A stretch of 64,000 bases of DNA from Corynespora cassiicola (taxonomy: Eukaryota > Ascomycota > Dothideomycetes > Pleosporales > Corynesporascaceae). Where the stretch lies: contig JAEUWY010000023.1 of the NCBI GenBank assembly GCA_022059125.1, positions 1,302,001 to 1,366,000 on the forward strand, in the 5' to 3' direction. A program made the position numbers and the translations under genes. The notes under the pieces were generated by a model that searched no databases, had not been told where the DNA came from, and was given only the letters and a program-made list of their open reading frames with translations. This document shows positions 22,281 to 49,803 of this stretch, piece by piece. The number at the start of each line of letters is the position of its first letter. The first letter of the stretch is position 1.

Positions 22281-22285
22281 TAGTA

Positions 22286-22654
22286 TATTAAAGCTGTGCT
22301 ACAGGCTATAAGCGAGGCTAAAAAGTAAATAGCTGCTTAGATTAATTTTTAAAAATAAATACTAGTAAAGTTACGTAAGTAAAATAATATGTAATATACT
22401 ATATAGATATATATATTAGTAATAGAGTATAATAAATTAATAGTTAATTCTAAATAATAGATTTGCTAATAAAGTAAATATAATTATAAAGTATAGTTAT
22501 ATAAACTATATATATATATTTAAAGCTGTTATTTAGTTCTGTTTAGTTACTCAGTACTGCTAAATAAACTAATTAACTAAATATATTATATAACTAGCTA
22601 TAGCAGTGCGACTCTGTCGGCCCTGTTATTAGCTTATATTTATAACTTATAATA
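22286..22654 (-). repeat. Gypsy-C 3' LTR (369 bp)
   Basis: Matches the split 5' LTR at 47932-49798 along its length. A purine-rich tract (CTAAACTAAAAAAAAATAG in the minus sense) lies directly upstream at 22655-22675 and fits a polypurine tract. Confidence 0.85.
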
Positions 22655-22873
22655 CTATTTTTTTTTAGTTTAGCTTAGTTTTTTAAGCTAATATATAACG
22701 TGCGGGTTTTTTTATTACTGTCTACTTTTATAATAATACCTAAAATACTAATAGTTTTTAGTACTGTCCGCTATTATTATCTAGCTAATTTTATTAAAAC
22801 TATAAAAAAAATTATAGTTTAAAAATATTTAACTTACGTAAAGTATAAATAAGTATATAAAATATATATTTAC

Positions 22874-25800
22874 TGTAAAGAATCTAGCTTTAGATAATAG
22901 TATTTGCTTTACACTAGAATTAATAACAGAAAAATAGCTTAAACAATATATTAATAGTAGTTTTAAAAATAATACTTATCGCGTTTTTAGCGCGTGTTAA
23001 GCGTAGATTTTACGCAGCTTACTCGCTTTACACGCTAATATAAATACAGAATAGCAGAAATTCCGCAATATTTATTACAGAACTTTTTTTTCTAGCTGCA
23101 GTCTCTAGCAGTAATCTATTAGCTTTAATAAAAAACTTTCGCTTTTATTTTAAAAAAAAAAAGAGTGTCTAAAAACATATTTTATGTTTATGTTTTAAAC
23201 GCGCTCTACGCGCGTGTTATATATAGTATATTTATATATTATATACTTAATTTTATAATATTTATTATATTATAATAAAGTCTGTTTACTGTTTTATATT
23301 TTAAAAATTTAGTAAAAGTAAGCTATAAAAGTAGTATATAAATAACAGCGCTCTTGCTCTACTTATATTTAGCACTTTTAAAATATTTTTATACTACATT
23401 TAAAGCGTAAGTTTATCGCTCTTATTATAGTTTACTATTTTAACTCTAAATATATTAAAAAAACGTATTTTTGTAATATATATTTTTTTATATAATCTGA
23501 CGCTAAAAAGCGTGCAGATATTATTATAGCGTATATAATATATATATATTACGCGCAGAACGTTATAAAGCAGATAAAACTTTATAAAATATTTAAATAC
23601 TGTTAGTATAAGTATTACGTTAAAAGCAACTATAGTAGTTACACAGCTATAAGTAACTTTAATATTATATATTATAAGTACGTTTTAGCTAATATTTACA
23701 GATTTTCTAAAAGTTTAACAGTTGCTTAAATTATTTATACAGGCTTTATACGCGCTATAATACTGCTGTTACTACTACTACTACATTTAAAACTAATACT
23801 ACTATAATTACAGCTAGTATTAAGCTTACGTGTTACTAGCGCTAATTTAATTTTAAATTTACTAACTACTACCGCGTTGCTGCTTATAGTAGCATATTTT
23901 TAAAAATTACTACTTAAATATTTACTATATTAGCGTAATTTTTTAGATTAATTTTAGTTAAGTAGTATTATATCGCGAGTGCGCTTAAGCAGATTATTAG
24001 CTATTTAGCTTATATAGTAAGTTTGTGTTTATAATATATCTATAGCGTATACTAATATATTTATAAAATAGTAGTACTAGTAGTAGACTGGATAAATCTA
24101 ACTCCGAGTCTAAAAATAACTTTAAAAAAAAAAATAGAAATAGTTTGTCTAGCAGAAAAAAAAATTAAAAAAAATAATAATCTACGTTTTAGTAGGTGCG
24201 GCGCTAATCTAGTACTACTTTTATATACAGTATTTATAGGCTCTAAGCTAGTAATTTTTTACTATTTTAACATACGGTCTTAGTATAATTTTTATATAGT
24301 TTATATATTATTTACTTTTTTTTTATATATAAAGATTTTAGTCCCGATTTGTAGTTACGGACTATATTTTCTATATTTTTAAAGTTTAAAGCTAGAGTTT
24401 ATATATTTTAGAAATTATTGTACTCTTTCTAGCGGAGTAAATATTATAGTTAACTTTTTTTTAAACGTTTTCTAAGAATTTTTTCTACTTTTTAAATTTT
24501 TTTTTTTTTTAGTATAATATCGGAGAAGTATGTGTTATCTTCTTTCTCTTCTAGCTTTAGTTTCTATTACTTTAATAAAAAAATATAGAATATATTATAA
24601 ATATAATATAAAAGCAGTAGAAGTAAGCGGTATATCTGCGATCTAACTGCGCCTTAAACTCTAAATAAGCTAATAAATTTACTAATAAGTTTTCTGCTTA
24701 GTTATTATGCTAGATTTATATATTTAGTACTAAGTAGTACTTAATCTTCTAGACGGAAAGTTTTATATTTATATTTTTAGTTATAGTACTAGTATTAATA
24801 TTTCTGTACTTTTTCTAAGTGCTTTATAAGCGCTATTTTTACGCTATATATACGCTTAACTTTATTAATCGTATTTAGTACCTTTTTTTCTAGCCTACTG
24901 TTTTTAAAAAGCTTAGTAAATAAAAAGTTTTTACTATAAACCGCGTAAAAAAACGTAGTTTTTATAGATTTATATACTAAATTATTATAAGTAAATTATA
25001 CTATTAGTAAAAGTTATATCTAATTGCTCTAGAATAATAAAGTAAATATCTAGAAATATTATTCTAGCGTTTAGTTTTAGTATTTAGTTTATCTGTCTGT
25101 CTGTAGATAAAAAGTAGTACTTAATTTATATTTTACCTGTAGTTAGTAGTATATTTCTATTTAAAACTTAGAAGTAAAAATAACTTCTCTGTTTAATATA
25201 ATACTTTTCTGTATTTTAAACTTTAATATAGTATTTATAAAATAAGCTTCTGCGAACTGTTTTACGTTTTATATTTTTAAAGCTAGTATATAAAAAGCTA
25301 TTTTTAAAAAGCGGTATACTATTATAAAAATCGTATTAAACGCGCCTTCTAAAAAATTCTTTACTAAAAGTAAGCTAGTAATAAAGTTTAGTATTACTTT
25401 TTTAAAAATATTTTTAGGTACCAGCAGCGGTAATAGCTTTCTATATTTACTATATTTTAGAGCTTTGCTTTTTTAGCATATAGCGTAAGTTTTTATATAA
25501 TTTTAAACGTTCTTACTAACAGAGAGCTAATAATAGGTTTTTTTAATTAGCTTTAGCGTTTTATATACGCTAAAATAGCCTGCTATACGCGTGTTATAGT
25601 TCTAAAACAAAATTTTTTATCTAATAGCTGGTTTATTTAAAACGTATACTCTGCTATTATATTTTAAAATTTTTTTTTTATCTAAGCGCTAAACGTACGC
25701 TTTACTACGTTTTTAAATACTATTTTTACTATTTAAACTTATAATCTATTTTTAGGTAAAAGCGTTTTTTTACTGCAGCTAATACAGAGTTTAAATAAAT

Positions 25801-28800
25801 AATTAAAACTTTATTTTTATAGGTTCGCTGCTAACTAGTACTTTAGCTAATAAATATAGTATATATAGTATGTATTTTATAGTACTAGTAGTAGAAATCT
25901 AACCGGTTCTGTAAACAGAGGTAATATACGTTTTATATATATTTAATAAGCTGTACTTATTTACAGATTCTCTTACTCTATTAACTATATTTTTTACTAA
26001 TAATTTATTCTGTAAAATAGATAATAATTAAATTAGCAGTAAATTTTTCTGTATATAATCTGCTTTTTATAAAAAGCTATCTGTAAAGTTTATTTTTTTT
26101 AAGTAATACTCTACTTTAAAATTAAACGCTGTTAAATATATTACTTATTTTATCTACTATAAATTAAGTTTCTGTACTGCGCGTATACCGCGCAGATTAT
26201 TATAATTACTTAGCACTTATATAGTATACTAAGTGTTTTTAAAGTAGTATCGCTACTATTTAAAGCTGTATATAATAGCTAAAAGCTTTAAATTATAGAC
26301 TTTGTAGTTCAGCTCTACAGCCTATAATTTTTTTAATATAAAAATAACTAGGTGCTATTTATAGTTTTTAAACAGTTAAAAAAAAATATTTAATATAGTA
26401 AAGGTTAACGCGTCTGTCTCTACGCGAATTAAATAAATAAAGTTATAATAGCGCAGAATAAGCGTATTTAAAAAGTAAGTTTTTAGTTTTATAAAACAAT
26501 TATTCGCGGTTTTATTCTAGTAGAAGTTCTAGCTTTTTTTAAGTAAGTCTGTAAAAAAAGCAGTTTTTTTTATATATTTTTTAATAAAGCGTTAGTAAAA
26601 GTTAGTAAATTCTAAAAAAGATTATAGTTTTTTAATATTAGTTAGCTACAGCTATTAAGTAATAGTTTTTATCTAAGTTAAGTTAGCGCACACGCTTCGC
26701 GTGTCTATAATAAATTTAAAAAAATATACTTTATTTAATATAAATATATATTTCTGTAAGTTAATAAATAGTTTTATTTTTTATAGTAATTTAAGTACTG
26801 CGTACACAGCGCGCTAATAAAGCGTAAAATTATTACTACTAATATAAATAAGAATATTATTTAGATAGACTACGTAAATATAGTTTAAATGTTTAATAAG
26901 AGCTTTATTAATATAGGCTTAGAAGCTTACAGAGGTATTTATTAATCTAAATAGTATTATAAAATATTTAAAGTAGCTGTAGCAGGTTCTAAAAGCGGTC
27001 TTCTACTTATTACCCGTCTTAATTTAAAGTCTGTAATAGATATTTTAAAAGTTTAAAGTTATATAGTAATATACGTCTAATAGGCGGTTTAATATTTTTC
27101 TAATTAAAAAAAACAGGTATTAATTTTTAACAGTAATAAAGTTTAAGCTTCTGTAGTTTACGCAGAAGCAGAAAATTCTGTTTTTTTTAGAAATAAATAA
27201 AATTAGAGCTTTAGTAGAGTTTATACTATATTATATCTAGCTGTTTTATAGCGTCTACTTTAAGTATTCGCGTAGTATTTTAAGCTTACGTAAAAAAAAA
27301 TTATAAAACAAACTGTACAGTAGTTTTTTTTTTTATTAAAAAAATTATATAGTTTAATAATTTAAAATTAAAAAATATAACTGCAGCTTTTTTATTAAAT
27401 ATATTAATATAGTTTTTTAATACTTCTGGCACGCGCGTTGCGTGCGCTATATACACTTTAAAAATACACGTTTTATATTTTCTGTTATTATCTATAGCTT
27501 AAAAAACATCTAAAAAAAAAAGTTAGAGTTAGTTTTTTCTATTTTTTCTTTTAGTTTTTTAATAGTAACTAGCTGGATATTCGCGCTAGTATAGCTTTAA
27601 CGCTATATTTAGGCTTTACAGTTAAAGTAGATATACTCTTTTTTAAGAAAAAAGTTTTTTAGTAATAAAAGCGTTTTTTTTTTATTAACGCCGTAAATAG
27701 TAGTCTGTACTTTTTATTTTACATCTGTATTATCTGCTAAGTATATTTAAATTATATATACTATATAGATGCTTTAGCGGTATACTTCTATCCAGCCTAA
27801 TTTAAAAAACTTAGCTTCTTTAATAGGCGATAAGTCTATTTCTACTATAATACGTTAGCTAATTAAACTAATATTTATTTATAGATTTAGAATAACTTAT
27901 AACTACTTTTTAGGTGTTATATTTTTAGATACACTGCACGTGCGCTTTATACCCAGTATAATATATATAAATATACGCTTTACTGTTCCCGGGTTATAAA
28001 TAAAGTTTAGCTTTTTTCTGTTTAGTAGATACAGACTAAAATCTAGTTTAGATTACTACTTCAGCATTTATTAGCGTAGTAGCCTATTTTTTAGTATTTA
28101 AAATAGATAATATTACTTTTATTGCGTAGCAATTTATTTGCAGAAAATATAAGCGCGTTAGCTATTTTTTATTTTTTAAATTTTTTATAGTAATTATTGC
28201 GTGTAGAAAGTATATATATTATAAAAAGTTATCGTAGATTATACTTAAAAGTAGAGTTTAAAATTACTAAGTCTTCTCGTGTTGCCAGTACTTAGTAGTA
28301 GTTAGTTATTACCTGTTATATTTTTAGTTAAAGTTTTAAAAATAGATATTAGATTTATTATAATTTAGTATAAAATATAAGTTAATTTTTTAAAATATTA
28401 AAATATGTTGCGAACGCGCGGACTGTTTAATTTTTTTATTAAATAGTCTAAGTATGCGCTGTAGCAGCTTCTAAAATACAGTTAATAAAGTTAGAAAGTA
28501 AGTTAAGTATATAAGTTTTAAAGTACTTTTAAGTTAGTATTTTTTTATATATTTTAAACGTGCGTTTATAGTACGAGTACTATAGTTTTCTTAGATTATC
28601 TACTAAGTATTATATAGCTTAGAGAACTTTGCTGTTACTATTATAAAACTTCTAAAATAGTAGCTAAAAAACTATTTTGCAGAAGTAGAAGAACTCGCAG
28701 TATTTTTTAAAGTTTTTTTTTCTATATTTTACTAGATTTTTTAGTTTAAGTACACGCTTTAGCTGCAGTAGCGTAAGCGCTCTAAATATGTTTTTTTTAT

Positions 28801-29359
28801 ATATATCTTGCGCGTAGAACTTAGAAGTTCTTTTAATAGCTAATTTTATTATATTTAGAATAGTACTTTTCTTTACGTTTTTAAGTTATATAATTTTAGC
28901 TTCTAATACGCGTAAGTATTATAGCTTTTAAAACTTATTGCGTTGCTTTTTTACAGCTTAAATACGCTTATTAAATGTTATAAAAACGCTTATTATAAGT
29001 ATTAGTTATTTATTATTAATAAAAAAAATATACGCGTTATTTATTTTCTGTAGTTATTTAAAGAGCTGCTGTATTTTTTTTAGAGGTGCTTTTTAACTAC
29101 CTGCACGCGTTCTAGAAGCTATTTTTAAATTATTATATTAAAAAGTATTATTATATAAAAAATTTAGCTTTAGATAATAGTATTTACTTTATACTAGAAT
29201 TAATAACAGAAAGATGGCTCGAATAATATATTAATAGTAGTTCTAAGAATAATACTTATCGCGTTTTTAGTATATGTTAAGCGCAGGTTTTACGCAGCTC
29301 ACTCGCTTTACACGCTAATATAAATATAAAATAGCAGGAATCCCGCAATATTTGTTATA
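22874..29359 (-). mobile_element. Gypsy-A copy 1, full length (6486 bp)
   Basis: Identical 5 bp target duplications TTTAC at 22869-22873 and 29360-29364. The two LTRs are 206 bp each (22874-23079 and 29154-29359), begin TGTAAT/TATAAC and end TTTACA in the element's sense, and differ mainly by transitions. A purine run (AGAAAAAAAAGTTC, minus sense) precedes the 3' LTR. It is inserted in the 3' part of Gypsy-C. Confidence 0.95.
23080..29153 (-). pseudogene. Gypsy-A gag-pol remnant
   Basis: Minus strand, many stops. The reverse-transcriptase core near 26841-26875 reads VVYLNNILIYI, where active Gypsy enzymes have YLDD: both Asp codons became Asn by G-to-A. An integrase segment near 25070-25130 reads STDRQIN-LKLN, matching the YHPQTDGQTERLNQ block of Ty3/Gypsy integrases. 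The order RT before integrase places it in Ty3/Gypsy rather than Copia. I could not identify a chromodomain. Confidence 0.8.
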
Positions 29360-29364
29360 TTTAC

Positions 29365-30151
29365 TTTAAAAAGTATAGTAAGTATCTATATTACAAGCAG
29401 TAATATAATATTTATATTACTTAGTTTAAGTTTTAGTATTTTGCTAAAAAAAATAAAAATTATAATAGTAAATAAAAAAATTATATAAAATACAGAATAC
29501 AGCTATAAAAGTATATAAAAAAGCTTTAAAAGACTTACAGGTAGCGAAAGCTAAAAAAAAACAGCTTTATTAATAAATAGACTTAATTAATTATTATGTG
29601 GAAAAAGCTATATCTGTAAAAAGGTAAAATTTTAAAAAATAAAAGTAATAAAAATATAAAGCGTTATTTAAAGTGTTTATTTTTAACAGTTTTTTAAAAG
29701 TTTTTTTTTTTTAAATTTTTTTCTAAGCACTTAAAACGCTATTAAAAGTTTTTCTAATAACTTTTAGAAAGTATTTATATTATCTACTAATTTTTAAATA
29801 TTTAGTTATATATAATATATATTTTTTTTCAGATATATTTTTTTTAATTATTTTTGTATAGTAGTAGAAGTAGTTTTATTTTTAGCTTTTTTTAAGTAGT
29901 TGCTAATAGTTTTACAGATTTTATTCTAATTTCCGCATATTTTCTAATTTTAAATATATTTTTTTTAACTAACTATTTTTATACAAAGTAGTTATTACAA
30001 AATTTATTTTATTTTATTTTATAGTAGCTTACTAACGCTTCTATTTTAAATTTAGCTTTTTTTTTTATTTTATAATAAAAGTATTTTTAAACTGGTATTT
30101 CAGCGTTAGCAGATTCTAATAGTAATACGTAAAATACTAAATATATTCTAA
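29365..30151 (-). pseudogene. Gypsy-C 3' coding end with chromodomain remnant
   Basis: Positions about 29900-30150 are homologous, on the minus strand, to the chromodomain end of Gypsy-B (41830-42090), including the AESANA-like stretch just before it. It is more mutated than in Gypsy-B. The part 29365-29890 would be the untranslated 3' region between pol and LTR, continued beyond the inserted Gypsy-A at 22655-22868. Confidence 0.65.
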
Positions 30152-30153
30152 TA

Positions 30154-31275
30154 ACGTAAACTATAAGTGAGCGACGTATATAAGCAAGCGACGTATATAA
30201 GCGAGTAACGCATATAAGCGAGCGACGCACATAAGCGAGCGACGCACACAAGCGAGCGACGCACTTAATACTAAGCATTTATATAAAACTTTAAAGCTAA
30301 ATAACTTTTTAAATATAATAGCTATTAAAATAGAAAATTTAATATTTACAAAGCTAAGATTTATAATTTTTTATAAATATAAAATTTTTATTTATAAATT
30401 TATTTATAAAAAAGTTATTTAATTTTAAAGTTTATATAAAGTAGTATTAGTTTAGTTAATATAATAGCTTTAAAATAGCTATAATAAATTATAATATTTT
30501 TTTATAAGCTAAATAAATATATATTAGTATACTAAATTTATTATTATAGTATACAGTGCTTTTTATAGTATAGTGTATTTATTTTATTTTAATATATTAC
30601 TTAAAAACAGTTTATATAATTAAACTTTTAAATAATAGTAGCTTTTTAAATAATTTTAAGCTTATTATAAACTAAATACTATAAAATATTATTAAAAATA
30701 AATACTAAAATTAAGTATTAAAGTAAAAATATAATTTTAGTACTATATATTTACTTATATAAAATACTAATTTTAACTTTTTTTTAAAAAAAAAATTACT
30801 AAAAATAGTTTTTAATATAAAATATATTAAGTTAAAAGTTTTTTAAAAAGTTTTAAATTAAATATATAATATATAAATTTAAAAAATAATTTTTTTAGTA
30901 TTATTAGAATAAACTAAATAAACTATACTAAAATAAGCACTATATACTATAATAATAAATTAAAATTATTAATATATACGTATTTTATTTATCAAAAAAA
31001 TAGTATAATTTATTATAGCTATTTTAAAGTTATTATATTAACTAAACTTATACTATTTTATAAAAATTTTAAAACTTAATAACTTTTTTTATTAATAAAT
31101 TTATAAATAAAATTTTTATATTAATAAAAAGTTATATATTTTAGCTTTATAAGTGTTAAGCTTTTATTTTAATAACTATTATAATTAAAAAGCTATTTAG
31201 CTTTAAAGTTTTATATAAATGCTTGGCATTAAGTGCGTCGCTCGCTTGTATGCGTCGCTCGCTTGTGGTTTACGT
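30154..31275. mobile_element. Long-inverted-repeat MITE (1122 bp) with TA target site
   Basis: Flanked by TA at 30152-30153 and 31276-31277. It starts ACGTAAACTATAAG and ends with the complement ACGTAAACCACAAG. The two arms pair for roughly 430 bp each with transition-type differences, leaving a short centre, so the single strand could fold into one large hairpin. Removing it restores the Gypsy-C sequence known from 41800-41835. No transposase is inside, so it is non-autonomous. The TA site and tip repeats suggest a pogo/Fot-like source in the Tc1/mariner superfamily (inference). Confidence 0.82.
30163..30264. repeat. Six tandem 17 bp units at the MITE left tip
   Basis: Six units of ATAAGCGAGCGACGCAC with a few transitions. 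The right tip has two inverted units (31233-31266). Two-unit versions occur at 7777-7810, 50231-50264 and 61967-62000. In DNA transposons such repeats are often transposase-binding sites. Confidence 0.92.
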
Positions 31276-33453
31276 TATTAGTAGAAAATTAAAGTTTATA
31301 GTTAACTAGTTTTTTATTCTAGAATTAAAAATAGTCTAATTTTAACGTAATCTAATTTTTACTTAATTATATTATTTAAAATTTTTATAAAAAATATACT
31401 TTATTTTTTTTAGCTAAAGTGCTATTTTTATTTTTAGTTAATATAAGAAATAGTTTTACGCTATGCTGTTTTAATATTTTTTATAATTATTTATAAAGTT
31501 TTAATAATTTTTTAATTTTTCTATTACTTAACTTATAACTAACTTAATTCGTTTTTTAATTTTTAGTAATAGAAAATTTAAATATATTCTATGTAATACG
31601 TAATAAAAAATTACTTTATTATTACTAATTTTTGTTATTAAATACTAGTTATACTATAAATAGTAGTAATACTTAATTATTTTATTTTTAGTTACTATAT
31701 ATCTGTAGATATATCTTTATAGTTTAGTTTATTTTTTCTATTTAACTGTTTATCTGTAAATAATATACTATTAATATATTTTTTAATTCTAATAGCTAAT
31801 ATTAGTATTATTTAATAGTTTAATATAAAAGTTTATCTCTATTACTAATAATTAATTAAAATAATTTATAATATTTAACTACGCGATTTAGAATAATCTG
31901 TACTAGTTTTAGTACAGTATAGTTATTTTAAATAAAATTATTTCTGCGTATTTTGTAAATCTGTTTATAACTACTAAAATAATATTATAAAATATTTTAA
32001 AACTAAGTTTTAAAACGTAGATAGTTTAGTAATAAAGTCTATAGTAATATCTGTTTAAAGTATTATTTAGTATTCTTTATAACAAATATTGCGAGATTTC
32101 TGCTATTCTAGTATTTAATTATTAACGCCGTGTAAAGCAAGCTGCTGTTTTAAAATTTAGCGCTAGCAGCTTTATTATCTGCTATAATTCTAGTATATTT
32201 CTAAACAGCATATTAATGTATACTACGGGCGAGTTAGTTAACAGATAAGTCGGTTACTTTTACTAAAACTACACTAAAATTTAACTTATTATAGTTTAAA
32301 ATATTATATTTTAGCCTTTTATAGCAGACTACAGCACGTAATATTATTTAAAAACTTTTTTTATATTAACTTTATACGTTCGCGCGTTATATTTAGTTTA
32401 ATTATATTTTTTATAGCGTTTTTAGAATAGCTTACTTTTTTAAACACGTATTTATTTTTTTACTTTTTTTCTATTACTATATATTTTGAACTTTTTTAAA
32501 ACTACTAGTTACTGCTTATTTTTAATTATTAAAGTTTTTTTTTTTAAATCTGCTTTTTTTTATACAATTTTTATTATATAGTAGCTTTATTAGCCGCTTT
32601 AAGTTTTCTAATTTTTTATTAAACTAAAACTAGCTTATATATAATAATTACGGCTTTTTTTAATACTTTTTTAAACGCTTTAACTATAAATATAAAAAAG
32701 CTGTTTATATATTTCTAAATTTTTAACTTTATAAGTATTAATTATAACTTAAATTTTAGAGTATTACTAAAAGTTTGCGACTACTAGAGTATATTATTTA
32801 TAGTAAATAATAGTAATAAAGCCTAAAGCTTTATATTAAAAGCTAATATAACTTATTTTAAGTTAAAAAAAACTAATTTAGCACTTTAAAACTCTTTTTA
32901 AATATTACTAAAAATAAATACTGTATTATAAGCTGCTTTAAAGTATAACAGAAATTTAAATTTTATAAAATAAGTAATCTAGTTATGTATAAGTATTTCG
33001 GCTTAGCATCTATACGCAGTTTTTAAAAAAATAAAATAGCTTATATTAAATAGCTGTAAAAAGTATAATAAATATAAAAGTATATATAAAGTAATAATTT
33101 TATTATTTTTATAGTATTGCTAGAAAAAAAGCGATTTATAGCTTTTATAGCTATTAATAACTAGCAGTTAGTAAGTGCTAATAGTATACTTTTTTATATA
33201 TTATTATAAGCACTTAGTTAAGCGCCGAACAGTAGAAACTAAATTAACTAGAAAGCAGAGATACAGAGTTTTAGAGATAATATGTAACGCATTACATAAC
33301 AGCTTAGTAGTAAATAAAAACACGTAAAATACTTAGTAGTAAGCGCTTAGAAATAAGCACGCTTAATAATAAGTATATAAAGCGCTTAGTAATAAGTACT
33401 AAAGCATATATATATAGTTCGCATAATTATACTTAATAATTATATTTATCTTA
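31014..33453. repeat. Left member of a near-identical duplication ending at the N gap
   Basis: Matches 33474-36570 base for base over long stretches, including the same MITE border and the same Gypsy-B insertion point at about 33203. It differs mainly in homopolymer lengths, and a scrambled 32100-32215 replaces about 750 bp. Both members stop or start exactly at the gap, which points to two overlapping contig ends rather than a biological duplication. Confidence 0.85.
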
Positions 33454-33473
33454 NNNNNNNNNNNNNNNNNNNN
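33454..33473. other. Assembly gap (20 N)
   Basis: Twenty Ns, a placeholder length. The sequence left and right of it overlaps in content (see the flanking duplication). Confidence 0.99.
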
Positions 33474-36400
33474 TTATAGCTATTTTAAAGTTATTATATT
33501 AACTAAACTTATACTATTTTATATAAATTTTAAAACTTAATAACTTTTTTATTTATAAATTTATAAATAAAAATTCTATATTTATAAAAAATTATATATT
33601 TTAGCTTTATAATTATTAAATTTTTTATTTTAATAACTATTATAATTAAAAAGCTATTTAGCTTTAAAATTTTATATAAATGCTTGGTATTAAGTGCGTC
33701 GCTTGCTTGTATACGTCGCTCGCTTGTAGTTTACGTTATTAGTAGAAAATTAAAGTTTATAGTTAACTAGTTTTTTTTATTCTAGAATTAAAAATAGTCT
33801 AATTTTAACGTAATCTAATTTTTTACTTAATTATATTATTTAAAAATTTTTTATAAAAAAATATACTTTATTTTTTTTTAGCTAAAGTGCTATTTTTTAT
33901 TTTTAGTTAATATAAGAAATAGTTTTACGCTATGCTGTTTTAATATTTTTTTATAATTATTTATAAAGTTTTAATAATTTTTTTAATTTTTCTATTACTT
34001 AACTTATAACTAACTTAATTCGTTTTTTTTTAATTTTTAGTAATAGAAAATTTAAATATATTCTATGTAATACGTAATAAAAAAATTACTTTATTATTAC
34101 TAATTTTTTGTTATTAAATACTAGTTATACTATAAATAGTAGTAATACTTAATTATTTTATTTTTAGTTACTATATATCTGTAGATATATCTTTATAGTT
34201 TAGTTTATTTTTTCTATTTAACTGTTTATCTGTAAATAATATACTATTAATATATTTTTTTTAATTCTAATAGCTAATATTAGTATTATTTAATAGTTTA
34301 ATATAAAAAGTTTATCTCTATTACTAATAATTAATTAAAATAATTTATAATATTTAACTACGCGATTTAGAATAATCTGTACTAGTTTTAGTACAGTATA
34401 GTTATTTTTAAATAAAATTATTTCTGCGTATTTTGTAAATCTGTTTATAACTACTAAAATAATATTATAAAATATTTTAAAAACTAAGTTTTAAAACGTA
34501 GATAGTTTAGTAATAAAGTCTATAGTAATATCTGTTTAAAGTTTATTTAGTATTTTTTATAACAAATATTGCGAGATTTCTGCTATTCTGTATTTATATT
34601 AGCGTGTAAAGCAAGCTGTGTAAAAACCTGCGCTTAACGTACGCTTAAAAAGCAATAAGTATTATTTTTAGAACTACTATTAATATATTATTTAAGCTAT
34701 TTTTCTGTTATTAATTCTAGTGTAAAGTAAGTATTATTGCCTGAAGCTAGATTTTTTATATTTTTATAGCTTATAGCTCTCCGTACTAAGCGTGTGTACT
34801 ATACTTATTTTTTTTAAAATATTATATATTTTTAATAAACTTTATTACTTTATTTTTTAATTTAGAAATATTATACATTTATTATATTAGTTTAATTATC
34901 TGTTTAACGCCTAGGTGTCTATATAACAGATTTTTATAATACTACTAAATAATAGTTTAATAAAGCTTTTTTAGTACTTATTAATATACTATTATAATAA
35001 AATTAATACTATGTGCTGGTTTTAAAGTGCTATTTAGCGCTTATTTAAAAATAGCAGCTTTATTCGTTAATTTAGTTTTTATAATATTTATTTTTTAATT
35101 TAGAGTATCTGCTTTTCTATTTTTTTTATCTAGTATATAGATAATTTTAAATTTATACTATTCTAGTTTTTTACTCTATCTAGTATATTATTAGTTTAAT
35201 AGTTTAGTTATTATAAATATTATTAGATTTTTACAATTTAAATATACTATAAGTTCTAAACAGCTTTCTGCGTAAATTCTCTAGTATTTAAAAAAATTTA
35301 TAATAGTAAGTAATTTTTTATTATAAATATTAATGTATACTACGGGCGAGTTAGTTAACAGATAAGTCGGTTACTTTTACTAAAACTACACTAAAATTTA
35401 ACTTATTATAGTTTAAAATATTATATTTTAGCCTTTTATAGCAGACTACAGCACGTAATATTATTTAAAAACTTTTTTTATATTAACTTTATACGTTCGC
35501 GCGTTATATTTAGTTTAATTATATTTTTTATAGCGTTTTTAGAATAGCTTACTTTTTTAAACACGTATTTATTTTTTTACTTTTTTTCTATTACTATATA
35601 TTTTGAACTTTTTTAAAACTACTAGTTACTGCTTATTTTTAATTATTAAAGTTTTTTTTTTTAAATCTGCTTTTTTTTATACAATTTTTATTATATAGTA
35701 GCTTTATTAGCCGCTTTAAGTTTTCTAATTTTTTATTAAACTAAAACTAGCTTATATATAATAATTACGGCTTTTTTTAATACTTTTTTAAACGCTTTAA
35801 CTATAAATATAAAAAAGCTGTTTATATATTTCTAAATTTTTAACTTTATAAGTATTAATTATAACTTAAATTTTAGAGTATTACTAAAAGTTTGCGACTA
35901 CTAGAGTATATTATTTATAGTAAATAATAGTAATAAAGCCTAAAGCTTTATATTAAAAGCTAATATAACTTATTTTAAGTTAAAAAAAACTAATTTAGCA
36001 CTTTAAAACTCTTTTTAAATATTACTAAAAATAAATACTGTATTATAAGCTGCTTTAAAGTATAACAGAAATTTAAATTTTATAAAATAAGTAATCTAGT
36101 TATGTATAAGTATTTCGGCTTAGCATCTATACGCAGTTTTTAAAAAAATAAAATAGCTTATATTAAATAGCTGTAAAAAGTATAATAAATATAAAAGTAT
36201 ATATAAAGTAATAATTTTATTATTTTTATAGTATTGCTAGAAAAAAAGCGATTTATAGCTTTTATAGCTATTAATAACTAGCAGTTAGTAAGTGCTAATA
36301 GTATACTTTTTTATATATTATTATAAGCACTTAGTTAAGCGCCGAACAGTAGAAACTAAATTAACTAGAAAGCAGAGATACAGAGTTTTAGAGATAATAT

Positions 36401-36570: not shown

Positions 36571-36754
36571 TTAGCAAATCTATTATTTAGAATTAACTAT
36601 TAACTTATTATACTTTATTACTAACACGGAGACCCGTACAGCATATCGCATATTATTTTACTTATATAACTTTACTAGTACTTATTCCTGAGAATTAATT
36701 TAAGCAGCTATTTGCTTTCTAGCCTCGCTTATAGCCTATAGCACAGCTTTAATA
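36319..36754 (+). repeat. Gypsy-B 5' LTR (436 bp)
   Basis: Aligns without length change to 42779-43214, with mostly C/T and G/A differences. An incomplete third copy occurs at about 33203-33453 in the gap-flanking duplication. Confidence 0.9.
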
Positions 36755-36772
36755 TTATAAACACTTTTTAAA

Positions 36773-39700
36773 ATAAGTACTACTTTAAAATCACGCGCAT
36801 TTTTAACTTTAACTAGTAGTACTGTTAATACTAAAACTACTACTAGTATAATTGTACAATTTAACACAGTAGACAATAATTCTATTAAAGTAGTAATACC
36901 TAATTTTTACTATAAAGAACGAAGTAAGCTTAAAAACTGGTTTTTACAGCTTAACTTATTTTTTAACTTCTAAAATAAAAATATTAAAAAAAAAAAACGC
37001 GTTATATTTGCAGCTACGTATATAAAAAGCAAAATACTTTAATAGATTAAACTAGTTTTTATTAAGTATAAAGACGGCGAAGCTAACAATAACGTTAATA
37101 AATAAATAGAAGACTTTAATAAATTTAAGAAAAAAATTAAATAAGTTTTTAGAGTTTTTAATAAAAATATAATTACTAAATAAGCTATCTAATATTTTAA
37201 ATAACAGGCTTTAGCTGCTAACTACGCTAATAAATTTTAGTAACTGTTAATTTTTACTAAATAAAATAATAAAGCACTTATAACAATATACTGTTAAAAA
37301 CTTAAACTTAACATTAAAAAAGAATTTATGTGTTTTAGAGCTTAGCTCAACACGCTTAAACAACTTATAAATAAATTTATTAATATTAATTAGAAACTGT
37401 ATAAATTATAAATAGAATTATACTAAAACTAAAATCTAAAATATAAATAACGTACTAAACTAAGCTACAGTAAAAAGTATTATAACGCTAATACTAGTAA
37501 ATAAGTTAAATATAAGGTAATGTATCTTACTCGCAACACCTACAGTAATAAACTTATAGTTTTTAGTAATATTTAGAAATCAGAATAAAAAAATAATAAA
37601 AAAAAAAATAATAAATTTAAAAGTAAAAGTATAACTTACTACGTATATAGAAAGACAGACTATATTACAAAAAACTGTTAATTAAAAAATAAAATTATTT
37701 AACAGCTTAATATATTATAAACTATTTTATATAATAAATCCGACGTAGATAATAAATAGAAAATCGTCGTAGACAGATTCTATAAAATAAAACTTATTTA
37801 TAATAGCAAACTACTGCAAAACAGAAAAATAGAAAATTTTTTTAATTATATTTAGTATTAAAACAAAAGCACTTAAACGGAGCTTAAAAGTATTTTTAAA
37901 AAAGTTAAATTTAAAAAACTTAGTTTTAAAAAAGAAGAAGCTTTTCGTAAAGCACACGATTACGAAAACTATCTAAATAATACTAGTTATAAGTTTAAAA
38001 AAAACAGTAATAGCAGCACGCTATCTAAACTTGTATAATTTAAAATAAATAAAAACTTTAAAAAGATATAAGAACTAGCTAAAGCTTTTAAAAAATACAG
38101 AAGAAATTTAATAAAAACGCCTGTATAGTAGAAAAAATTACCTGTAATATATAAACGGTTAAAAAAGCACTACAACTTAGATAAAGAAAACTAAGATTTA
38201 GAGAAACGCTGATAACGACGTAGTTTTAAAATATAGAAATAAGTTAGTTAACTAGATTTAGAAATTAGGCTGGAAGTTTTACTAGACTCTAATAGTAAAC
38301 TAAATATAATTTTAAGTTTTTTACGAAGCCGAAACACGTAAAAACTGTAATACTATTTAAATTTAAAAAATTTAAAGTACGTAAGCTACTTATAGATATT
38401 CTATAAAAAAAACTAATACTAAATCTACTACTTAGATAAAACAGTAGTAGAATAGTTTTTAAAAAAACTACGTAAATATATGTAACAGTAGTTTAACTGC
38501 AAAACATATATATATAATACTTATTTATAAAATAAATAATAAGTATAATATTTTTTTAGAATAAATAAAAACAAAGAACTTGTAATAAATATGCTAGTTA
38601 ATAAAAAATATACATAAAATTTTTAGTAAATATATTTATATAAAGATTACAAACGTTACTAAAATAAAAAACGCTTATATAGATTTAGTAATAAGTTTTT
38701 TTTAGAACAGTATCTAGCGCTTAGAATTAATTTAAAGCATTATACGCTACTAATTTAGAAAATTTAGTTAAGCTATCTGTTAAGCTTAATAGAGACTAGA
38801 TAAAAATATTATTAGATATAAAAATTTAGCGTAACTACTTTTTACAGCAGACTGTAAAACGTAGTAAAACAAAAATATATACTTATAAGCAACTTTATTT
38901 TTTTTATATAGTAATTAAAAAGAAAATACTAGAAAAAGTATTAATAAATTAAGAAGCTATAACTATTATAGATATCTAAAAATACTAAAAAAAGATTTTT
39001 TTCGACATTATAGACACGGCTATTTATAACATTATTTTAAAACTTCTATAGTTTAGAAAGTATAACTTATATATTAATTAAATAAGAAAAAAGCTTTTAT
39101 TTATAGAATGTGATTACGCTATTATATTAGAACCTATATATTAGCAGCATTTAATAGTAGATAAAATTACGCTAAATAATATAAGTAGTAAAAAATTAAC
39201 TAAGACGCTTTTAAAAAAAAAGATTAACTTTACTAAATCTAATAAAAAGCTACTAAATAAAAAAGTAAAAGTTTTAGAAATAACTTGCGTAATTTTTAAA
39301 ATCTCTAAAAAGTATAGTAAATAAAAACTATTTTTTTAAAAAGAGGTAGATAACAGAGTGTTATTTAAGTATCAGCTCTAAAACTGCGAAATAGCCTTTT
39401 AAAAAAAAAAGTATTTAACTTTTAAGCCTATCTACAGTTTATTAAAAAAAAAACTTATAGTATTATAAGTATACTTTAATAAAAATTTTAAAAAAAAATT
39501 TATACGTAAATTAACGTCAGAAGTAGAATATCTAATTATTTTTGTTTTTAAAAAAGATAGATTTCTACAGTTATATATAAATTTTAAAAAATTTAATAAT
39601 ATTATAATTAAGAACAGATATCTACTACCGAATATTTAAGAGCTTAGAAATAGGCTATTTAAAATATAGATATTTATAACTTTAGATTTCTAAAACGCAT

Positions 39701-42087
39701 ACAATCTAATACGTATAAAAAAAAGTAAAAAATAGAAAATAGTATTCCGGACGCGGTATAGATACTATAAATATTTTATAATACTATTTAGTTTTACTAA
39801 CACACTTGCAATATATTAAGCACTTATTAATAACGTATTAAAAGTACATCTAGATATATTTATTATTATATATTTAGACGATATTTTAGTTTTTTTTAAA
39901 GATTTTAAAGAATATATTTAGTATATACGGATAGTACTAGAATGTTTAAAAAAAACAGAGCTACGACTTAAACTAGAGAAATATAAATTCTATAAAAAAA
40001 AAGTTAAATTTTTAAAATATATTATAGAAAAATATAGAGTTAAAATTAGTTTGAAAAAAATTAAAGTAGTTAAGAACTAGCTAACGCTAAAAAACGTTAA
40101 AAATATATAATTTTTTTTAGAATTCTGTAATTTTAACAGACAGTTTATTAATTACTACTTAGAAAAAGCACTACTATTTATAAAATTAATAAAAAAAAAT
40201 ATACTATTTAAGTAGAATACGGACTAATAATAAGCTTTTAAAACACTTAAAAAAGTAAATATATTACTACTAGTTTTTATATTTTTTATTAGTAGAAAAT
40301 TTTTACGTATAGAAACGGACGTATCAGATCTAATAATAAAAGCATATATTAATTAGAAAAAAAAAAGTAAATAGTATTTAATTACTTAATACTTAAAAAA
40401 GTTTAGTAGAGCTGAAGAAAATTACAATATTTATAATAAAAAGTTACTTACTATTATAGACTTTTTTAAATATTAGAGAATTTATACAGAAAACTGTTTA
40501 GAACTTACAGTATATTTAAATTATAAAAACCTAATAATATTTATAATAACTAAACTATTAGATCGACGATATACTAGATAGAGTAAAAAACTAAAATAAT
40601 ATAAATTTAAGATTATTTATATACTAAGTAAAAAAAATAGAAGAGCTAATATTTTAAGCCGAAAAACAGATATTACAGAAACTAAGTTAATAAATAAAGC
40701 TGCTATTTTTAAGTAAGCGCTAAACAGCACTTTAGAACCAGCACACAGCATTAATCTTATTATAATAGTATATTAATAAGTACTAGAAAAATTTTATTAA
40801 ATTATTATTTAGTAGTATTACGAAAATCTGTTGCACAGACACCTAGATATTAAATAAATAATTAAACTAATATAACAAACGTATAATATTTTTAGATTAA
40901 AAAATAAAGTAGCGAAGTATATTAAGAAATATATAATATATTAGAAAAATAAATATAGTATACACGCTTAGTACAGAGAGCTATAAGTTATAAAAATACT
41001 AGATAAACTTTAAATAGATATTACTATAGACTTTGTTACTAAACTACTAACGTTTTATAACCTAGTTTTTAAAGTACTTTATAATACTATTTTAGTAGTT
41101 GTAGACAGATTTACAAAATATATAAAAATAATTCTATTTAAAAATAACTATACTGTACTAAAACTAGTACAGATTATTTTAGATTGCGTAGTTAAGTATT
41201 ATAAATTATTTTAATTAATTATTAGTAACAGAGATAAACTTTTTACATTAAACTATTAGATAATATTAATATTAGCTATTAAAATTAAAAAAAAATTATT
41301 AATAGTATATTATCTACAGACAGACAGTTAAATAGAGAAAATAAATTAGACTATAAAGACATATTTACGGATGTATAGTAACTAAAAACAGAATAATTAA
41401 GTATTACTACTATTTATAGCATAACTCGTATTTAATAATAGAGAATTAGTAATAATAAAGTAATTTTTTTATTATATATTACACGGGACATATCTAAATT
41501 TTCTATTACTAAAAATTAAAAAAAAACGGATTAAGCTAGTTGTAAGTTAAGTAATAAATAAATTAAAAAAACTATAAAAACTTTATAAATAATTATAGAA
41601 AAATATTAAAACAGCATAACGCAAGACTATTTCTTATATTAACTAAAAATAAAAAATAGTACTTTAGCTAAAAAAAGAGGATAAAGTATATCTTTTTACG
41701 AAAAACTTTTAAATAAAATAACTAAGTAAAAAATTAGATTACGTTAAAGTTGGATTATTTTTAATTCTAGAACGAAAAGGACTAGTTAACTATAAACTTT
41801 AACTCTCTGCTAATACTAGAATATATCTAGTATTCTATATATTACTATTAGAATCTGCTGACGCTAAAATACTAGTTTAAAAACACTTCTATTACGAGAC
41901 AGAAGAAGAAGTTAAATTTAAAATTGAAGTACTGCTAGACTACCGTAAAATTAAGCAAAAAAAATTCTAAAACAAATAGTTTGTTTAAAAATTTCTAGTT
42001 AAATAAAAAGAATACCCTAATTTAGAAAATACTTAGAAATTAGAAAAGAATCTGTAAAATTGTCAGTAATTACTAAAAAAATACTAA
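36773..42087 (+). pseudogene. Gypsy-B gag-pol polyprotein remnant
   Basis: The start is ATA AGT ACT ACT at 36773 (ATG mutated). Gag runs to a degraded zinc knuckle near 37630-37680 (CX2CX4HX4C with Cys and His changed). Pol has the RT fingers and palm near 39355-39930, with YLDDILVF intact at 39871-39894, RNase H with an ETDVS segment near 40311, an integrase core near 41020-41400, and a chromodomain at the C-terminus (41911-42087) with KFKIEVLLDYRK at its start and NLENT before the end. Most interruptions are TAA/TAG at Gln or Trp positions, the expected RIP outcome. Not functional. Confidence 0.88.
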
Positions 42088-42193
42088 AAAAAATATATTA
42101 TCTACTACTACACAGGGTTAGGACGAGAGAACTTACCTATAAAAAAAAAGTATATTTTCTAGAAATAATTAGAAATTTAAAAGATCTAAAACT

Positions 42194-42418
42194 ATGTCCG
42201 CAGTAATATATAAAAAAAAAAGAATAGCAGAATTAATAAAATTTATAGTAGCTTATATTTTAGAAAAAAAGATAACTATTGCGTCTGCGGTAGAACAGTC
42301 GCTAAACTTAGTAGTTACTAACTTTTTTTTTTACACTATTTTAGAAGCTAGATATAAAGCCTTTTTTTTAGCACGCTCTTCTGTCTACTTAAAAATTTTT
42401 TTATTATATAGTAAATAA
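42194..42418 (+). other. 74-codon open frame in the Gypsy-B 3' untranslated region
   Basis: An ATG-started frame between the chromodomain stop and the 3' LTR, same strand as pol: a hydrophobic segment with a basic N-terminus. Surviving 74 codons in RIP-mutated DNA is mildly unusual. I see no family similarity or domain; most likely chance or a remnant of an accessory frame. Confidence 0.3.
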
Positions 42419-42778
42419 GCGATTATCTGCGTAAGCAACTTTTTATTATTATCTACTTTTTTCTAGTATTTATTATAAGTCTAGTTAAAAGAGAACTATA
42501 ATATATCTACGTACGGATAATTTAAGCGGGTACACTCAGAACACTTTAAAGAAAAATTTAGTATAATGTAATAATTAATACCTTTAAGAGAATAATAAAT
42601 ATAAAAGTTATCTGCTAAAATATTGGCACAACGAATTTCAGCGCTAAAACAGATATAATATTAAGTAAAAAATATAATAATTTACTTTAAACCGCACGAG
42701 CGGGGTAAACTCCGGTTATATACTAAAAGGTAAAACAGTTATATGATTTAAAAACAAAACACTAGAAAAAGAAAATAA

Positions 42779-43214
42779 TGTTATAAGTACTTAGTTAAGC
42801 GCTGAACAGTAGAAGCTAAACTAATTAAAAAGTAGAAATACAGAGTTTTAAGAATAATATGTAACGTATTACGTAATAGCTTAGTAGTAAGTAAAAACAC
42901 GTAAAATATTTAGTAGTAAGCGCTTAGAAATAAGTACGCTTAATAATAAGCATGTAGAGCGCTTAGTAATAAGTACTAAGGCATATATATATAGTTCGCA
43001 TAATTATACTTAATAATTATATTTACTTTATTAGCAAATCTATTATTTAGAATTAACTATTAATTTATTGTGCTCTATTGCTAACATAGAGACCCGTATA
43101 GTATATCGCACATCGTTTTACTCACGTAACTCTACTAGTACTTATCTCTAAGAATTAACCCAAGCAGCTACTTGCTTTCTAGCCTCGCTTATAGCCTGTA
43201 GCACAGCCTTAACA
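42779..43214 (+). repeat. Gypsy-B 3' LTR (436 bp)
   Basis: Starts TGTTATAAG and ends CCTTAACA, the intact TG...CA form. Its downstream half is shared with the Gypsy-C LTR; the upstream half is not. Confidence 0.92.
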
Positions 43215-44096
43215 TATATCTGTTAAAATACTTTAACTACTTAAAACTAAGTTTATTAGTTATCTAGCTGTTACTAAAAATTTTAATAACTTAATTTTAG
43301 AGCAGATTTTTTTTAATACTAGCTAGTAAAGTAGTAACGCGTTTTAAAAATAATAAAAAACAAAATAGCTTATTTTTTAGTATTAATATTTTATATAACT
43401 GTTATCTACTCGCGGTTATCTAGCTAAACTATTTTTAATTTTTTTTATTATTTTAAAGCTGTAATAACTGTTTCTGTTAATATTTAGTTTATTATAAAAT
43501 TTATTTTATTAAAGTTATATATATTATTATTTTAAATACTATACTTAGCTTTAATACTAGCTATTAGGCTAAACTAGCTCTAGATTACTTTAGAGTTTTT
43601 ATATTTAGCTTTTTTATAGTTATACTTCTAATTAAATTTTATTTTAAGCTTTAGTTAACGTTTTATAAATATACTAAACTAATTTATATTAATAGAGTTT
43701 AGATTGCGCTTAGCGCGCAGAAAATTAGCTATAACAGCTATATTTACTAGCTAAAAGCTAAATTTTTACGCGTTTAGCTTAAGTATATAATTAATAATTA
43801 TCTGTTTTTTATTATTATCTAACTTTTATAAATTAGATATAATATTAATTTATAAAAGTTGTTCTACGTGTTAGTTACTTAGTATATTTTAAAATACTTT
43901 ATAAATAGCTGTAGCGCGTTACTGGAAAAAATTTATATTTTATTTAAAAGCTTAAAACGCAAGCTGTACTTAAGCTTCCTAAAATATATTAATAATAAGT
44001 TATTATTAAAGTATTAGTATAAGAAAGGTATTTTAGTGTAGTTTTAGTAAAAGTAACCGACTTACCCGTTGACTGACTCGCCCGTAGTATACGTTA

Positions 44097-47913: not shown

Positions 47914-47931
47914 TTTAAAAAATATTTATAA

Positions 47932-49798
47932 TATTAAAGCTGTGCTACAGACTATAAGTAAAACTAAAAAATAAGTAACTGCTTAAATTAATTTTTAAAA
48001 ATTAATACTAGTAAAGTTATATAAGTAAAATAATATGCGATAGACTATATAGGTATCTATCTAAAGAGCTGTAGAAGTCCTTTTCTCTCAGCTTTACTAA
48101 ACCAGAACTAAATAATAAATACAGATAATAAGTATAAACAGTAATAACGCTGGTCAGGCGGTTAATAAAACAGTAACTAAAAATAATAAAAAATATTTAA
48201 GTTATTAATAAGTATATAAGTAATTTCTATTCTGCGAGCATGTAAGTCGCAAAAGTTATAATAGAAAATAAAATATTATTTTAAAACTCTAAGACTTTAA
48301 AGCTCTGAGATAGTAACGTTTATAAAAGCCTATTTAAAGTTGTTGTAATATTAAAGCAAATAATTATAATCTATAAGCTAGTAAAGTTTTTTTTTTAACG
48401 AGTTATTAAGCCGTAAATTTTAATTCTAATATATAAAGATGCTGTCTGCTGTACTAGAACTGTATAAAATAAACTTTTAACTAAAACTTTTAAATTACAG
48501 CTTTTTTAAATCGTAGAAAAGACATCTTGTTTTAATTAAAACTTAACTTATTATAAGTAAACTGTTTTATAGGACCAGAACAGCTTATAGCTAACGTAGC
48601 GTAGTAATATAACTGCGATAGCTATAATAGCTATAATAGCTTATAGAGTTCTAATTTCTACAGCTACACTTAGCGTAGTTAGTATTATTTTAATAATTTT
48701 AGCTTATAGTAAAAATAACTTTTTTCTAAAACTTTAGCTAAAGCTTTAGCTAAAATTTTTACTAAAATTTTTAGTACTAATAACAGATTAAAATTTAAAC
48801 TTTAACTTTATTACGCAGTATTTTTATTTAAATATTCTACTTAGCAGATAGTTTTTTTTTATAGGCTTTTAGAAGCGCTAAAAAAAGAAGTAGCAGTTTA
48901 AGCAGCCTAAACAGCAGCAGTAATCTGTATATTATATATATTTTATATTTAAGTAACTGCTAACGTGTAATAGTAATTACAAAGTAATAGCAGTTATAAA
49001 AAATAGTATTTATAAGTAACTTTTAGCGTTAACAGTTCCTTTATTTAGTTAATTACATCTTCTCTCTTAGGCCTTTACTATAAAAGTATATATTAATCTA
49101 ATCTTTTTTTTTAAGCTTTTACTATAACTGTAAGCTATACTGTACGTAACTATACTGTACGTAACTCTACTATAATATTTATATAAGCGAAATAATTAAG
49201 ACAGTAGAAAGTAATAGTATTAAAAAGCGAGTGCGTAGGTAGTAGCGATTATATAAACTGCGCGACGCAGATATAAAGAATTAAAAGCTAAAAATATGTT
49301 TAAAAATTATATAGTTATAGTTATAGTTATTATAGATTAAAGGCGGAGAGAATTATTAAAATACTATTATTATTTAAGGTAAAAGCGTAGGTTACGTGTC
49401 AACGTCACGTCACGTAATAAAATAATATTATAAAATATATAAAATTACGTAACAGGTAGTACCTGCTAACTAAAATAGAATAGAAACAGAATAATATACT
49501 CGCTGCTCGTTAATAACAAAATAGAAACAGTAGAGAAAAACAGAAATATAGGTATCTATATTAGTAATAGAGCATAATAAATTAATAGTTAATTCTAAAT
49601 AATAAATTTGCTAATAAAGTAAATATAATATTAAGTATAATTATGTAAACTATATATATATACCTAAAACTGTTACTTAGTTCTGCTTAGTTACTTAGTA
49701 CTACTAAGCAGACTAATTAACTAAGTATATTACGTAACTAGCTATAGCGGTGCAACTCTATCAGCCCCGTTATTAGCCTACATTTATAGCTTATAATA
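47932..49798 (-). repeat. Gypsy-C 5' LTR, split by the non-LTR-like element
   Basis: The parts 47932-48060 and 49560-49798 together give about 368 bp, matching the 369 bp 3' LTR at 22286-22654. Confidence 0.85.
48061..49545 (-). mobile_element. Non-LTR-like element copy B (1485 bp)
   Basis: A perfect 14 bp target duplication, ATATAGGTATCTAT, at 48047-48060 and 49546-49559. Homologous to 14637-16207 in reverse. In its coding sense (minus) it ends CTACAGCTCTTTAG. Allowing TAA/TAG for Gln, a protein-like frame with Gln-, Leu- and Tyr-rich segments is readable. There are no inverted or long direct terminal repeats, and I recognise no reverse transcriptase or endonuclease motif. Confidence 0.75.
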
Positions 49799-49803
49799 TA
49801 GTA

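What the first reader, a model, noticed from the sequence alone, without database searches (positions are those of the whole stretch)
22281..49803. A 27.5 kb Gypsy-C element, still bracketed by TAGTA, with a four-level nest inside
The same TAGTA lies outside both LTRs, so all of 22,286-49,798 was once one roughly 7 kb insertion. Inside it are Gypsy-A (TTTAC duplication), a MITE (TA), a solo LTR (TTTTT), DNA element D (TA) containing Gypsy-B (TATAT), and a non-LTR-like element (14 bp). This gives a readable order of insertion events in one locus.
Basis: seen in the sequence. Interest (0 to 1): 0.75.

Follow-up and report, generated by a model that had tools for sequence, protein, structure and literature searches.

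The report
Nested, mutated retrotransposons with assembly fault
In a very AT-rich block of a fungal chromosome, one jumping element really was invaded by several others (one of them invaded again), but part of the stretch is probably written twice by the genome assembly, so it is a well-documented ordinary nest rather than a new kind of thing.

Summary
The nest is real. TAGTA flanks a gypsy-type element (Gypsy-C, minus strand) at 22281-22285 and 49799-49803. Its outer flanks, joined with one TAGTA, match 6 other genomic places without interruption, so the insertion has empty sites and its host is itself a repeat. Gypsy-A, the MITE, the solo LTR, element D and a non-LTR-like element each interrupt sequence that other Gypsy-C copies carry collinear and unbroken; Gypsy-B likewise interrupts D (3 of 3 copies). 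Layers: host repeat > Gypsy-C > D > Gypsy-B. The five direct inserts cannot be ordered among themselves.

Correction: a 20-N gap (33454-33473) is flanked by a probable false duplication. 32210-33453 equals 35327-36570 (1244 bp); 31276-32081 repeats 33737-34557 but lacks bases, mostly in A/T runs, that comparison copies have. So 27.5 kb is about 2-3 kb too long. LTR pairs differ by 108 transitions and 2 transversions in 983 bases, too few transversions to date the layers.

Side result: the MITE is a 1.06-kb palindrome with a RIP-like core (8-12% GC), about 97% identical between un-RIPed loci, with tips shared with DDE_1 transposons: apparently still mobile after saturation.

The parts
20604..22285 (.). 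left part of the older host repeat into which Gypsy-C inserted (unclassified; ends with TAGTA 22281-22285)
   Evidence: collinear with L067-L072 to different extents; no Pfam match in 6 frames of 20500-22285 with stops as X
49799..50111 (.). right part of the host repeat (begins with the second TAGTA 49799-49803)
   Evidence: joined with the left flank it matches 6 unoccupied places
22286..22654 (-). Gypsy-C LTR, left (3' LTR in the element's sense); TATTA...TAATA
   Evidence: outer end agrees with 41 other listed matches; pairs with 47932-48060 + 49546-49798
22655..22873 (-). Gypsy-C internal piece up to the Gypsy-A target TTTAC
22874..29359 (-). Gypsy-A: LTRs 22874-23079 and 29154-29359 (206 bp each), TSD TTTAC
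   Evidence: RNase H and Integrase_H2C2 profiles on the minus strand; 5 of 5 Gypsy-C copies uninterrupted here
29365..30153 (-). Gypsy-C internal piece
30154..31275 (.). palindromic MITE, TA target, with a 17-bp repeat array at its left tip
   Evidence: self-complementary; array; tips shared with DDE_1 elements; 5 of 5 Gypsy-C copies uninterrupted
31276..32081 (-). Gypsy-C internal piece, left version: lacks bases mostly in A/T runs; probably the false duplicate of 33737-34557
32082..33453 (.). rest of the probable false duplicate: solo-LTR start, 65 bp (32145-32209) without counterpart, then 1244 bp identical to 35327-36570
33454..33473 (.). 20 N (taken as an assembly gap)
33474..33736 (.). 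MITE right-arm fragment at the start of the next assembled piece; 14 of 253 differences from 31013-31266, no nearer to it than to some other copies (13-14)
33737..34557 (-). Gypsy-C internal piece (better version)
34558..34760 (+). solo LTR of the Gypsy-A family, opposite orientation to Gypsy-A, TSD TTTTT
   Evidence: 4 of 4 Gypsy-C copies that reach here are uninterrupted
34761..35332 (-). Gypsy-C internal piece
35333..36313 (.). element D, left part, with TIR; TA target
   Evidence: L022-L024, uninterrupted copies of about 1.86 kb; no Pfam match
36319..43214 (+). Gypsy-B: LTRs 36319-36754 and 42779-43214 (436 bp), TSD TATAT
   Evidence: RNase H profiles over cut-off, Tf2-1 SH3 and chromodomain below cut-off
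43220..44094 (.). element D, right part, with TIR
   Evidence: L022-L024
44095..48060 (-). Gypsy-C internal region and the first part of its right LTR (from 47932), with a perfect 22-bp x 10.5 array at 44673-44903
48061..49545 (.). non-LTR-like element of about 1.5 kb, 14-bp TSD
   Evidence: 3 of 3 Gypsy-C copies that reach here are uninterrupted
49546..49798 (-). rest of the Gypsy-C right LTR (5' LTR in the element's sense), beginning with the second copy of the 14-bp TSD

Best explanation
A Ty3/gypsy-type LTR retrotransposon (Gypsy-C, about 6.8 kb, minus strand) inserted at TAGTA in an older repeat inside an AT-rich block of an ascomycete-like chromosome. It was later hit by a second gypsy element (A), a palindromic TA-type MITE, an element of the A family that survives as a solo LTR, a TA-type DNA transposon (D) that itself took a relative of Gypsy-C (Gypsy-B), and a non-LTR-like element. 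The retroelement layers then changed almost only by transitions, as RIP would do. The assembly broke at the MITE palindrome and wrote part of MITE, Gypsy-C, D and Gypsy-B twice, on either side of a 20-N gap. Shown: target duplications, empty sites, collinearity, the duplication and the gap. Inferred: the insertion mechanisms, RIP as the cause, and that the duplication is false rather than a real tandem copy.
For: Empty site of Gypsy-C in 6 places: three matched over 1-520 of the joined flanks, the others over 1-519, 3-514 and 1-473, at 87-91%. In one search five of the six 80-base junctions aligned cleanly; L070 lies in the other orientation, its forward junction alignment failed, and it was judged from its blastn rows. 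Inserts absent from other Gypsy-C copies at the same points: Gypsy-A 5/5, MITE 5/5, solo LTR 4/4, D 4/4, non-LTR-like 3/3 of the copies that reach the point (5 copies fetched out of 41 other matches). Gypsy-B absent from 3 of 3 fetched D copies. LTR outer ends agree. RNase H before integrase in Gypsy-A, RNase H in Gypsy-B. LTR pairs: 108 transitions, 2 transversions in 983 aligned bases. Duplication: 1244/1244 identical next to the N gap, while LTR pairs here are 88-89% identical; over 31276-32081 the left version lacks 20 columns, most in A/T runs, that are filled in all 5 comparison sequences (19 columns) or 4 of 5 (1 column) (four genomic copies and the window's Gypsy-B).
Against: No reverse transcriptase profile was found, and the one Gypsy-C piece scanned (44094-47933, 3 minus frames) gave no Pfam match, so its class rests on 85-87% identity to Gypsy-B. 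Only 54 of the 108 LTR transitions lie in CpA/TpG context (no expectation was computed), so the classic RIP context is not strongly shown there. The 1244-bp exact part shows no homopolymer errors, so poor sequence does not explain the whole duplicate evenly. One search's alignment also has 6 substitution columns and 5 extra columns in the left version (most beside gaps or at the end; one search's alignment has none between columns 256 and 1082). The first 250 bases after the gap differ from the MITE arm before it by 14 of 253. No reads were available.
Confidence: 0.92

Rival explanations
1. The repeated stretch beside the N gap is a real, very recent tandem duplication of about 3.1 kb with a deletion in one copy.
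For: Both versions carry the D/Gypsy-B junction and a long identical tract; AT-rich fungal blocks do rearrange (general knowledge).
Against: Differences in 31276-32081 are mostly bases missing from A/T runs in one direction, at places where comparison copies have them, and it sits exactly at an N gap.
Confidence: 0.08
2. The two TAGTA-flanked LTRs belong to two different insertions and the shared 5-mer is chance.
For: TAGTA is common here: 0.77% of 5-mers.
Against: The two outer flanks are contiguous in 6 other copies of the host repeat, and the internal pieces are collinear with single elements elsewhere.
Confidence: 0.01
3. The MITE was AT-rich by origin and not through RIP, so its spread says nothing about RIP.
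For: Copies differ by about as many transversions as transitions; the cause of a composition cannot be observed directly.
Against: CpA/TpG is depleted and TpA raised in its core as in its AT-rich neighbours, while its CpA-bearing tips match elements with a DDE_1 domain.
Confidence: 0.3

Closest known systems
Nested LTR retrotransposons in RIP-affected AT-rich blocks of filamentous ascomycetes (recalled; not read here in a paper)
   Same: Elements inserted in elements, target duplications intact, transition-dominated decay, AT-rich composition
   Different: Nothing of kind; here empty sites were found for each layer tested
Chromodomain-bearing Ty3/gypsy elements (chromoviruses; Tf2-1-like), recalled
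   Same: One Gypsy-B frame matches RNase H, Tf2-1-like SH3 and chromodomain profiles in that order
   Different: SH3 and chromodomain scores are below their curated cut-offs; no RT profile found in the decayed sequence
pogo/Fot1-type (DDE_1) MITEs of fungi, recalled
   Same: TA target; tip TAACGTAAACCACAAGCGAGCGACGCA shared with elements that hold a DDE_1 domain in the same genome
   Different: Full-length palindrome of about 1.06 kb with a core of 8-12% GC, also in DNA of 40-53% GC

Membership tests
Ty3/gypsy LTR retrotransposon (Gypsy-A) | paired LTRs with 5-bp target duplication | tested here: met
   206-bp LTRs, TTTAC on both sides; empty site in 5 of 5 copies; 16 of 40 other listed LTR matches begin at query 14-17, i.e. 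at 22873-22876
Ty3/gypsy LTR retrotransposon (Gypsy-A) | order RNase H before integrase | tested here: met
   RT_RNaseH_2 at 882-977, Integrase_H2C2 at 1175-1231 of one frame, both over cut-off
Ty3/gypsy LTR retrotransposon (Gypsy-B) | paired LTRs with 5-bp target duplication | tested here: met
   436-bp LTRs, TATAT; D uninterrupted in 3 of 3 copies
Chromovirus (Gypsy-B, and Gypsy-C by identity) | chromodomain at the end of the integrase region | tested here: inconclusive
   Chromo 21.1 bits against cut-off 25.1; SH3_Tf2-1 27.5 against 30
Ty3/gypsy LTR retrotransposon (Gypsy-C) | TG...CA LTR ends | tested here: inconclusive
   Ends read TATTA...TAATA; the Gypsy-B right LTR still reads TGTTA...TAACA, so mutated TG/CA is likely but inferred
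Ty3/gypsy LTR retrotransposon (all) | primer-binding site and polypurine tract | not tested
   not looked for
TA-type (Tc1/mariner-like) DNA transposon (D) | TIRs and TA duplication | tested here: met
   TIRs of at least 50 bp and TA on both sides, by eye; several copies with tips about 1.86 kb apart
TA-type (Tc1/mariner-like) DNA transposon (D) | DDE transposase | tested here: not met
   No Pfam match in 12 frame pieces of this decayed copy; no listed DDE_1 match lies in the three D copies fetched. Filed only as TA-type, superfamily open
pogo/Fot1-type MITE | TA target and tips of an autonomous element | tested here: met
   TA and tips; DDE_1 domain between identical tips at C5:4951117-4952970. 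Mobilisation in trans is inferred
non-LTR retrotransposon (48061-49545) | copy-specific target duplications of about 10-20 bp | tested here: met
   12-14 bp repeats recognised by eye in 7 of 17 printed copies, two of them with one mismatch; none recognised in the other 10, many of them partial matches
non-LTR retrotransposon (48061-49545) | reverse transcriptase or poly(A)/simple-repeat tail | tested here: not met
   No Pfam match in 6 frames; no poly(A) seen at the printed ends. Not filed as a LINE; a non-autonomous product of target-primed reverse transcription remains possible

The most novel reading that the evidence does not exclude
The palindromic MITE in the nest is a RIP-saturated transposon that kept moving: its core had already lost nearly all RIP targets, so new copies could hardly be damaged further, and its tips still fit the transposase of DDE_1 elements in the same genome, some with open frames. 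RIP would then have favoured an immune, parasitic palindrome instead of ending the family.
Probability: 0.55. Interest if true: 0.5.

Novelty: new member of a known kind. Interest (0 to 1): 0.3.

Why it matters
The nest is a closely checked example of layered insertion in an AT-rich fungal block, with empty sites for each layer, and it warns that such blocks can be lengthened by false duplication at assembly gaps. The side result may matter more: if a transposon can outlast RIP by having no targets left, RIP does not simply end transposon families. That can be tested by comparing MITE copies across strains.

Tried and rejected
LTR dating: transversions are 2/342 (C), 0/206 (A), 0/435 (B). This fits C being older but does not separate the layers, so no ages are given. 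In one search, with untrimmed ends, C shows 3/366 (one in the 14-bp target region, one beside a gap), A 1/207 and B 2/441 (those three outside the LTRs as finally delimited).

Class of host repeat, D and non-LTR-like element by Pfam: no matches. Rfam on the window: nothing at gathering scores. Host species: the protein at 6106-7053 has ascomycete relatives by the names given, but no near-identical named one among the 120 listed of 2517, so the species stays unknown. Literature: the searches listed 2, 3, 0, 1, 0 and 1 papers; only passages of PMC9594970 were read, about a different nest (a Starship), and it is not used as support; the others were seen in listings only. Absence of the MITE idea from print is not claimed.

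Chance target duplication was considered and rejected through the empty sites.
Full report
Setting. The window is C23:1302001-1366000 of a 44.35-Mb genome in 23 contigs. GC is 45-69% in the first 7 kb, 40% at 7-8 kb, and 13-25% after that. Samples outside put the right edge of the AT-rich block between 1,405,600 and 1,420,001 of C23 (12 samples of 600 bases), so the block is roughly 95-110 kb. The retroelement pieces have TpA/ApT 1.4-1.7 and (CpA+TpG)/(ApC+GpT) 0.19-0.38, except the solo LTR at 0.78; the gene-bearing part has 0.68 and 1.32. This is the usual picture of RIP (inferred).

Gypsy-C and its TAGTA. The LTR at 22286-22654 pairs with 47932-48060 plus 49546-49798. The other 41 matches listed for 22281-22881 all begin at query positions 1-10, 38 of them at 4-8, so the outer end at 22286 is the family's end (40 of 317 candidates were scored, so copy numbers are lower bounds). 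The flanks 22026-22285 and 49804-50063, with one TAGTA, match C15:419422, C16:1703472 and C5:6063309 over 1-520, C5:3913356 over 1-519, C20:2699914 over 3-514 and C1:913414 over 1-473, at 87-91%. The remaining matches there are the window's own two halves, a half match at the start of C21 (88%), and 34 weaker or short ones at 67-72%. Longer alignments show the six places as uninterrupted host repeat.

Inserts. Five Gypsy-C relatives were fetched and compared piece by piece, without rebuilding the element. The pieces 22286-22873, 29365-30153, 33737-34557 (also 31276-32081), 34761-35332, 44095-48060 and 49546-49798 follow each other on L017. At the joints the BLAST pieces overlap by 2-23 bases around the target duplications. 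L018 was fetched only in part, L019 carries its own insert of about 1.86 kb, and L020 is interrupted after its third piece. Uninterrupted among the copies that reach the point: Gypsy-A 5/5, MITE 5/5, solo LTR 4/4, D 4/4, non-LTR-like 3/3. Three copies of D (L022-L024) lack Gypsy-B. Gypsy-A and the solo LTR are one family (87%). Gypsy-B and Gypsy-C share 85-87% over the internal region but only 233 bases of LTR by BLAST.

Assembly fault. 33454-33473 is N. Before it, 32210-33453 equals 35327-36570 over 1244 bases with no difference. 31013-32144 repeats 33474-34618 with 16 mismatches and 22 gap runs, 16 of the runs missing from the left version; 15 of the mismatches lie in the first 256 columns, within the MITE arm. 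In 31276-32081 against 33737-34557, 20 alignment columns are missing from the left version; all five comparison sequences have a base in 19 of them and four of five in the other. Against this, five columns are extra in the left version, four of them at the alignment's end, and 6 columns are substitutions. Between the two tracts the left version has 65 bases (32145-32209) where the right has 708; 32155-32191 is covered by none of the 38 matches, though that search skips common words. The simplest reading is one locus written twice, the left version of poorer quality, broken at the MITE palindrome. By my own arithmetic from these coordinates, the Gypsy-C pieces counted once sum to about 6.8 kb after allowing for the 22-bp array, the size of L017 and L021. 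The N run could in principle be a stretch withheld by the data holders, but its length and the flanking duplication point to a scaffold gap.

Dating. LTR pairs: C 36 transitions and 2 transversions in 342, A 25 and 0 in 206, B 47 and 0 in 435. Of the 108 transitions 54 are in CpA/TpG context by my test, with no expectation computed. The transversions are too few to separate ages; nesting alone orders C before its inserts and D before B.

The MITE. It is a palindrome over nearly its whole length: it matches itself on the other strand at 80% over query 77-1114, and folds back on itself. Ten copies of the 103 matches were compared. Three (L046, L051, L052) sit in DNA of 40-53% GC with CpA/TpG not depleted (1.28-1.53), one (L050) at an edge, six in AT-rich DNA; L047 and L049 of these lie in a duplicated stretch of the assembly and are not independent. 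Cores have 8-12% GC and depleted CpA/TpG in all ten. Among L046, L051 and L052 the cores differ by 12/19, 14/9 and 15/16 transitions/transversions in 866-893 bases (about 97% identity), unlike the LTR pairs; the window's copy against them gives 11/9, 17/19 and 23/9. L054 is more distant. The 27-base tip with its TA occurs 38 times with up to 2 mismatches, and not at all for the backward control. Some pairs about 1.85 kb apart enclose DDE_1 matches: C5:4951117-4952970 with both tips exact, C6:2472277-2474131 and C20:1598303-1600157 with 2 mismatches per tip. So a helper of the pogo/Fot1 type is likely (inferred), and the MITE seems to have spread after its core was saturated (inferred).

Verdict. 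The finding is sound in its structure, over-long by a probable assembly fault, and ordinary in kind. What deserves follow-up is the MITE.

Noticed in passing
30154-31275; L045-L054: The MITE is a near full-length palindrome, RIP-like and saturated in its core, present also in un-RIPed loci, and shares tips with elements that hold a DDE_1 domain.
   Followed up: partly
44673-44903: A perfect 22-bp x 10.5 tandem array inside Gypsy-C; judged from BLAST coordinates, the other copies that cover it (L017, L018, L019, L021) have no such long array. Late local expansion or sequencing artefact.
   Followed up: partly
C5:3877630-3899894 and C2:5457041-5479305 of G000: Four pairs of matches, from three queries, lie at a constant offset of 1,579,411 between these stretches, the second near the end of C2: a segmental or false duplication of at least 22 kb. 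L047 and L049, one from each, differ at 22 of 1062 bases.
   Followed up: no
about 7.7-64 kb of the window: One AT-rich block of roughly 95-110 kb in the middle of a 2.68-Mb contig, rich in gypsy elements; it could be a centromere.
   Followed up: no
48061-49545 and 14635-16210: A 1.5-kb element of which six other copies share both ends or nearly so while many matches are partial, with 12-14 bp target duplications, no TIR or poly(A) seen by eye and no Pfam match; its class is open.
   Followed up: partly
50111-50233: The match to the host repeat stops at about 50,111 in most copies, just before another Gypsy-A-type LTR, so a further insertion may interrupt it.
   Followed up: no
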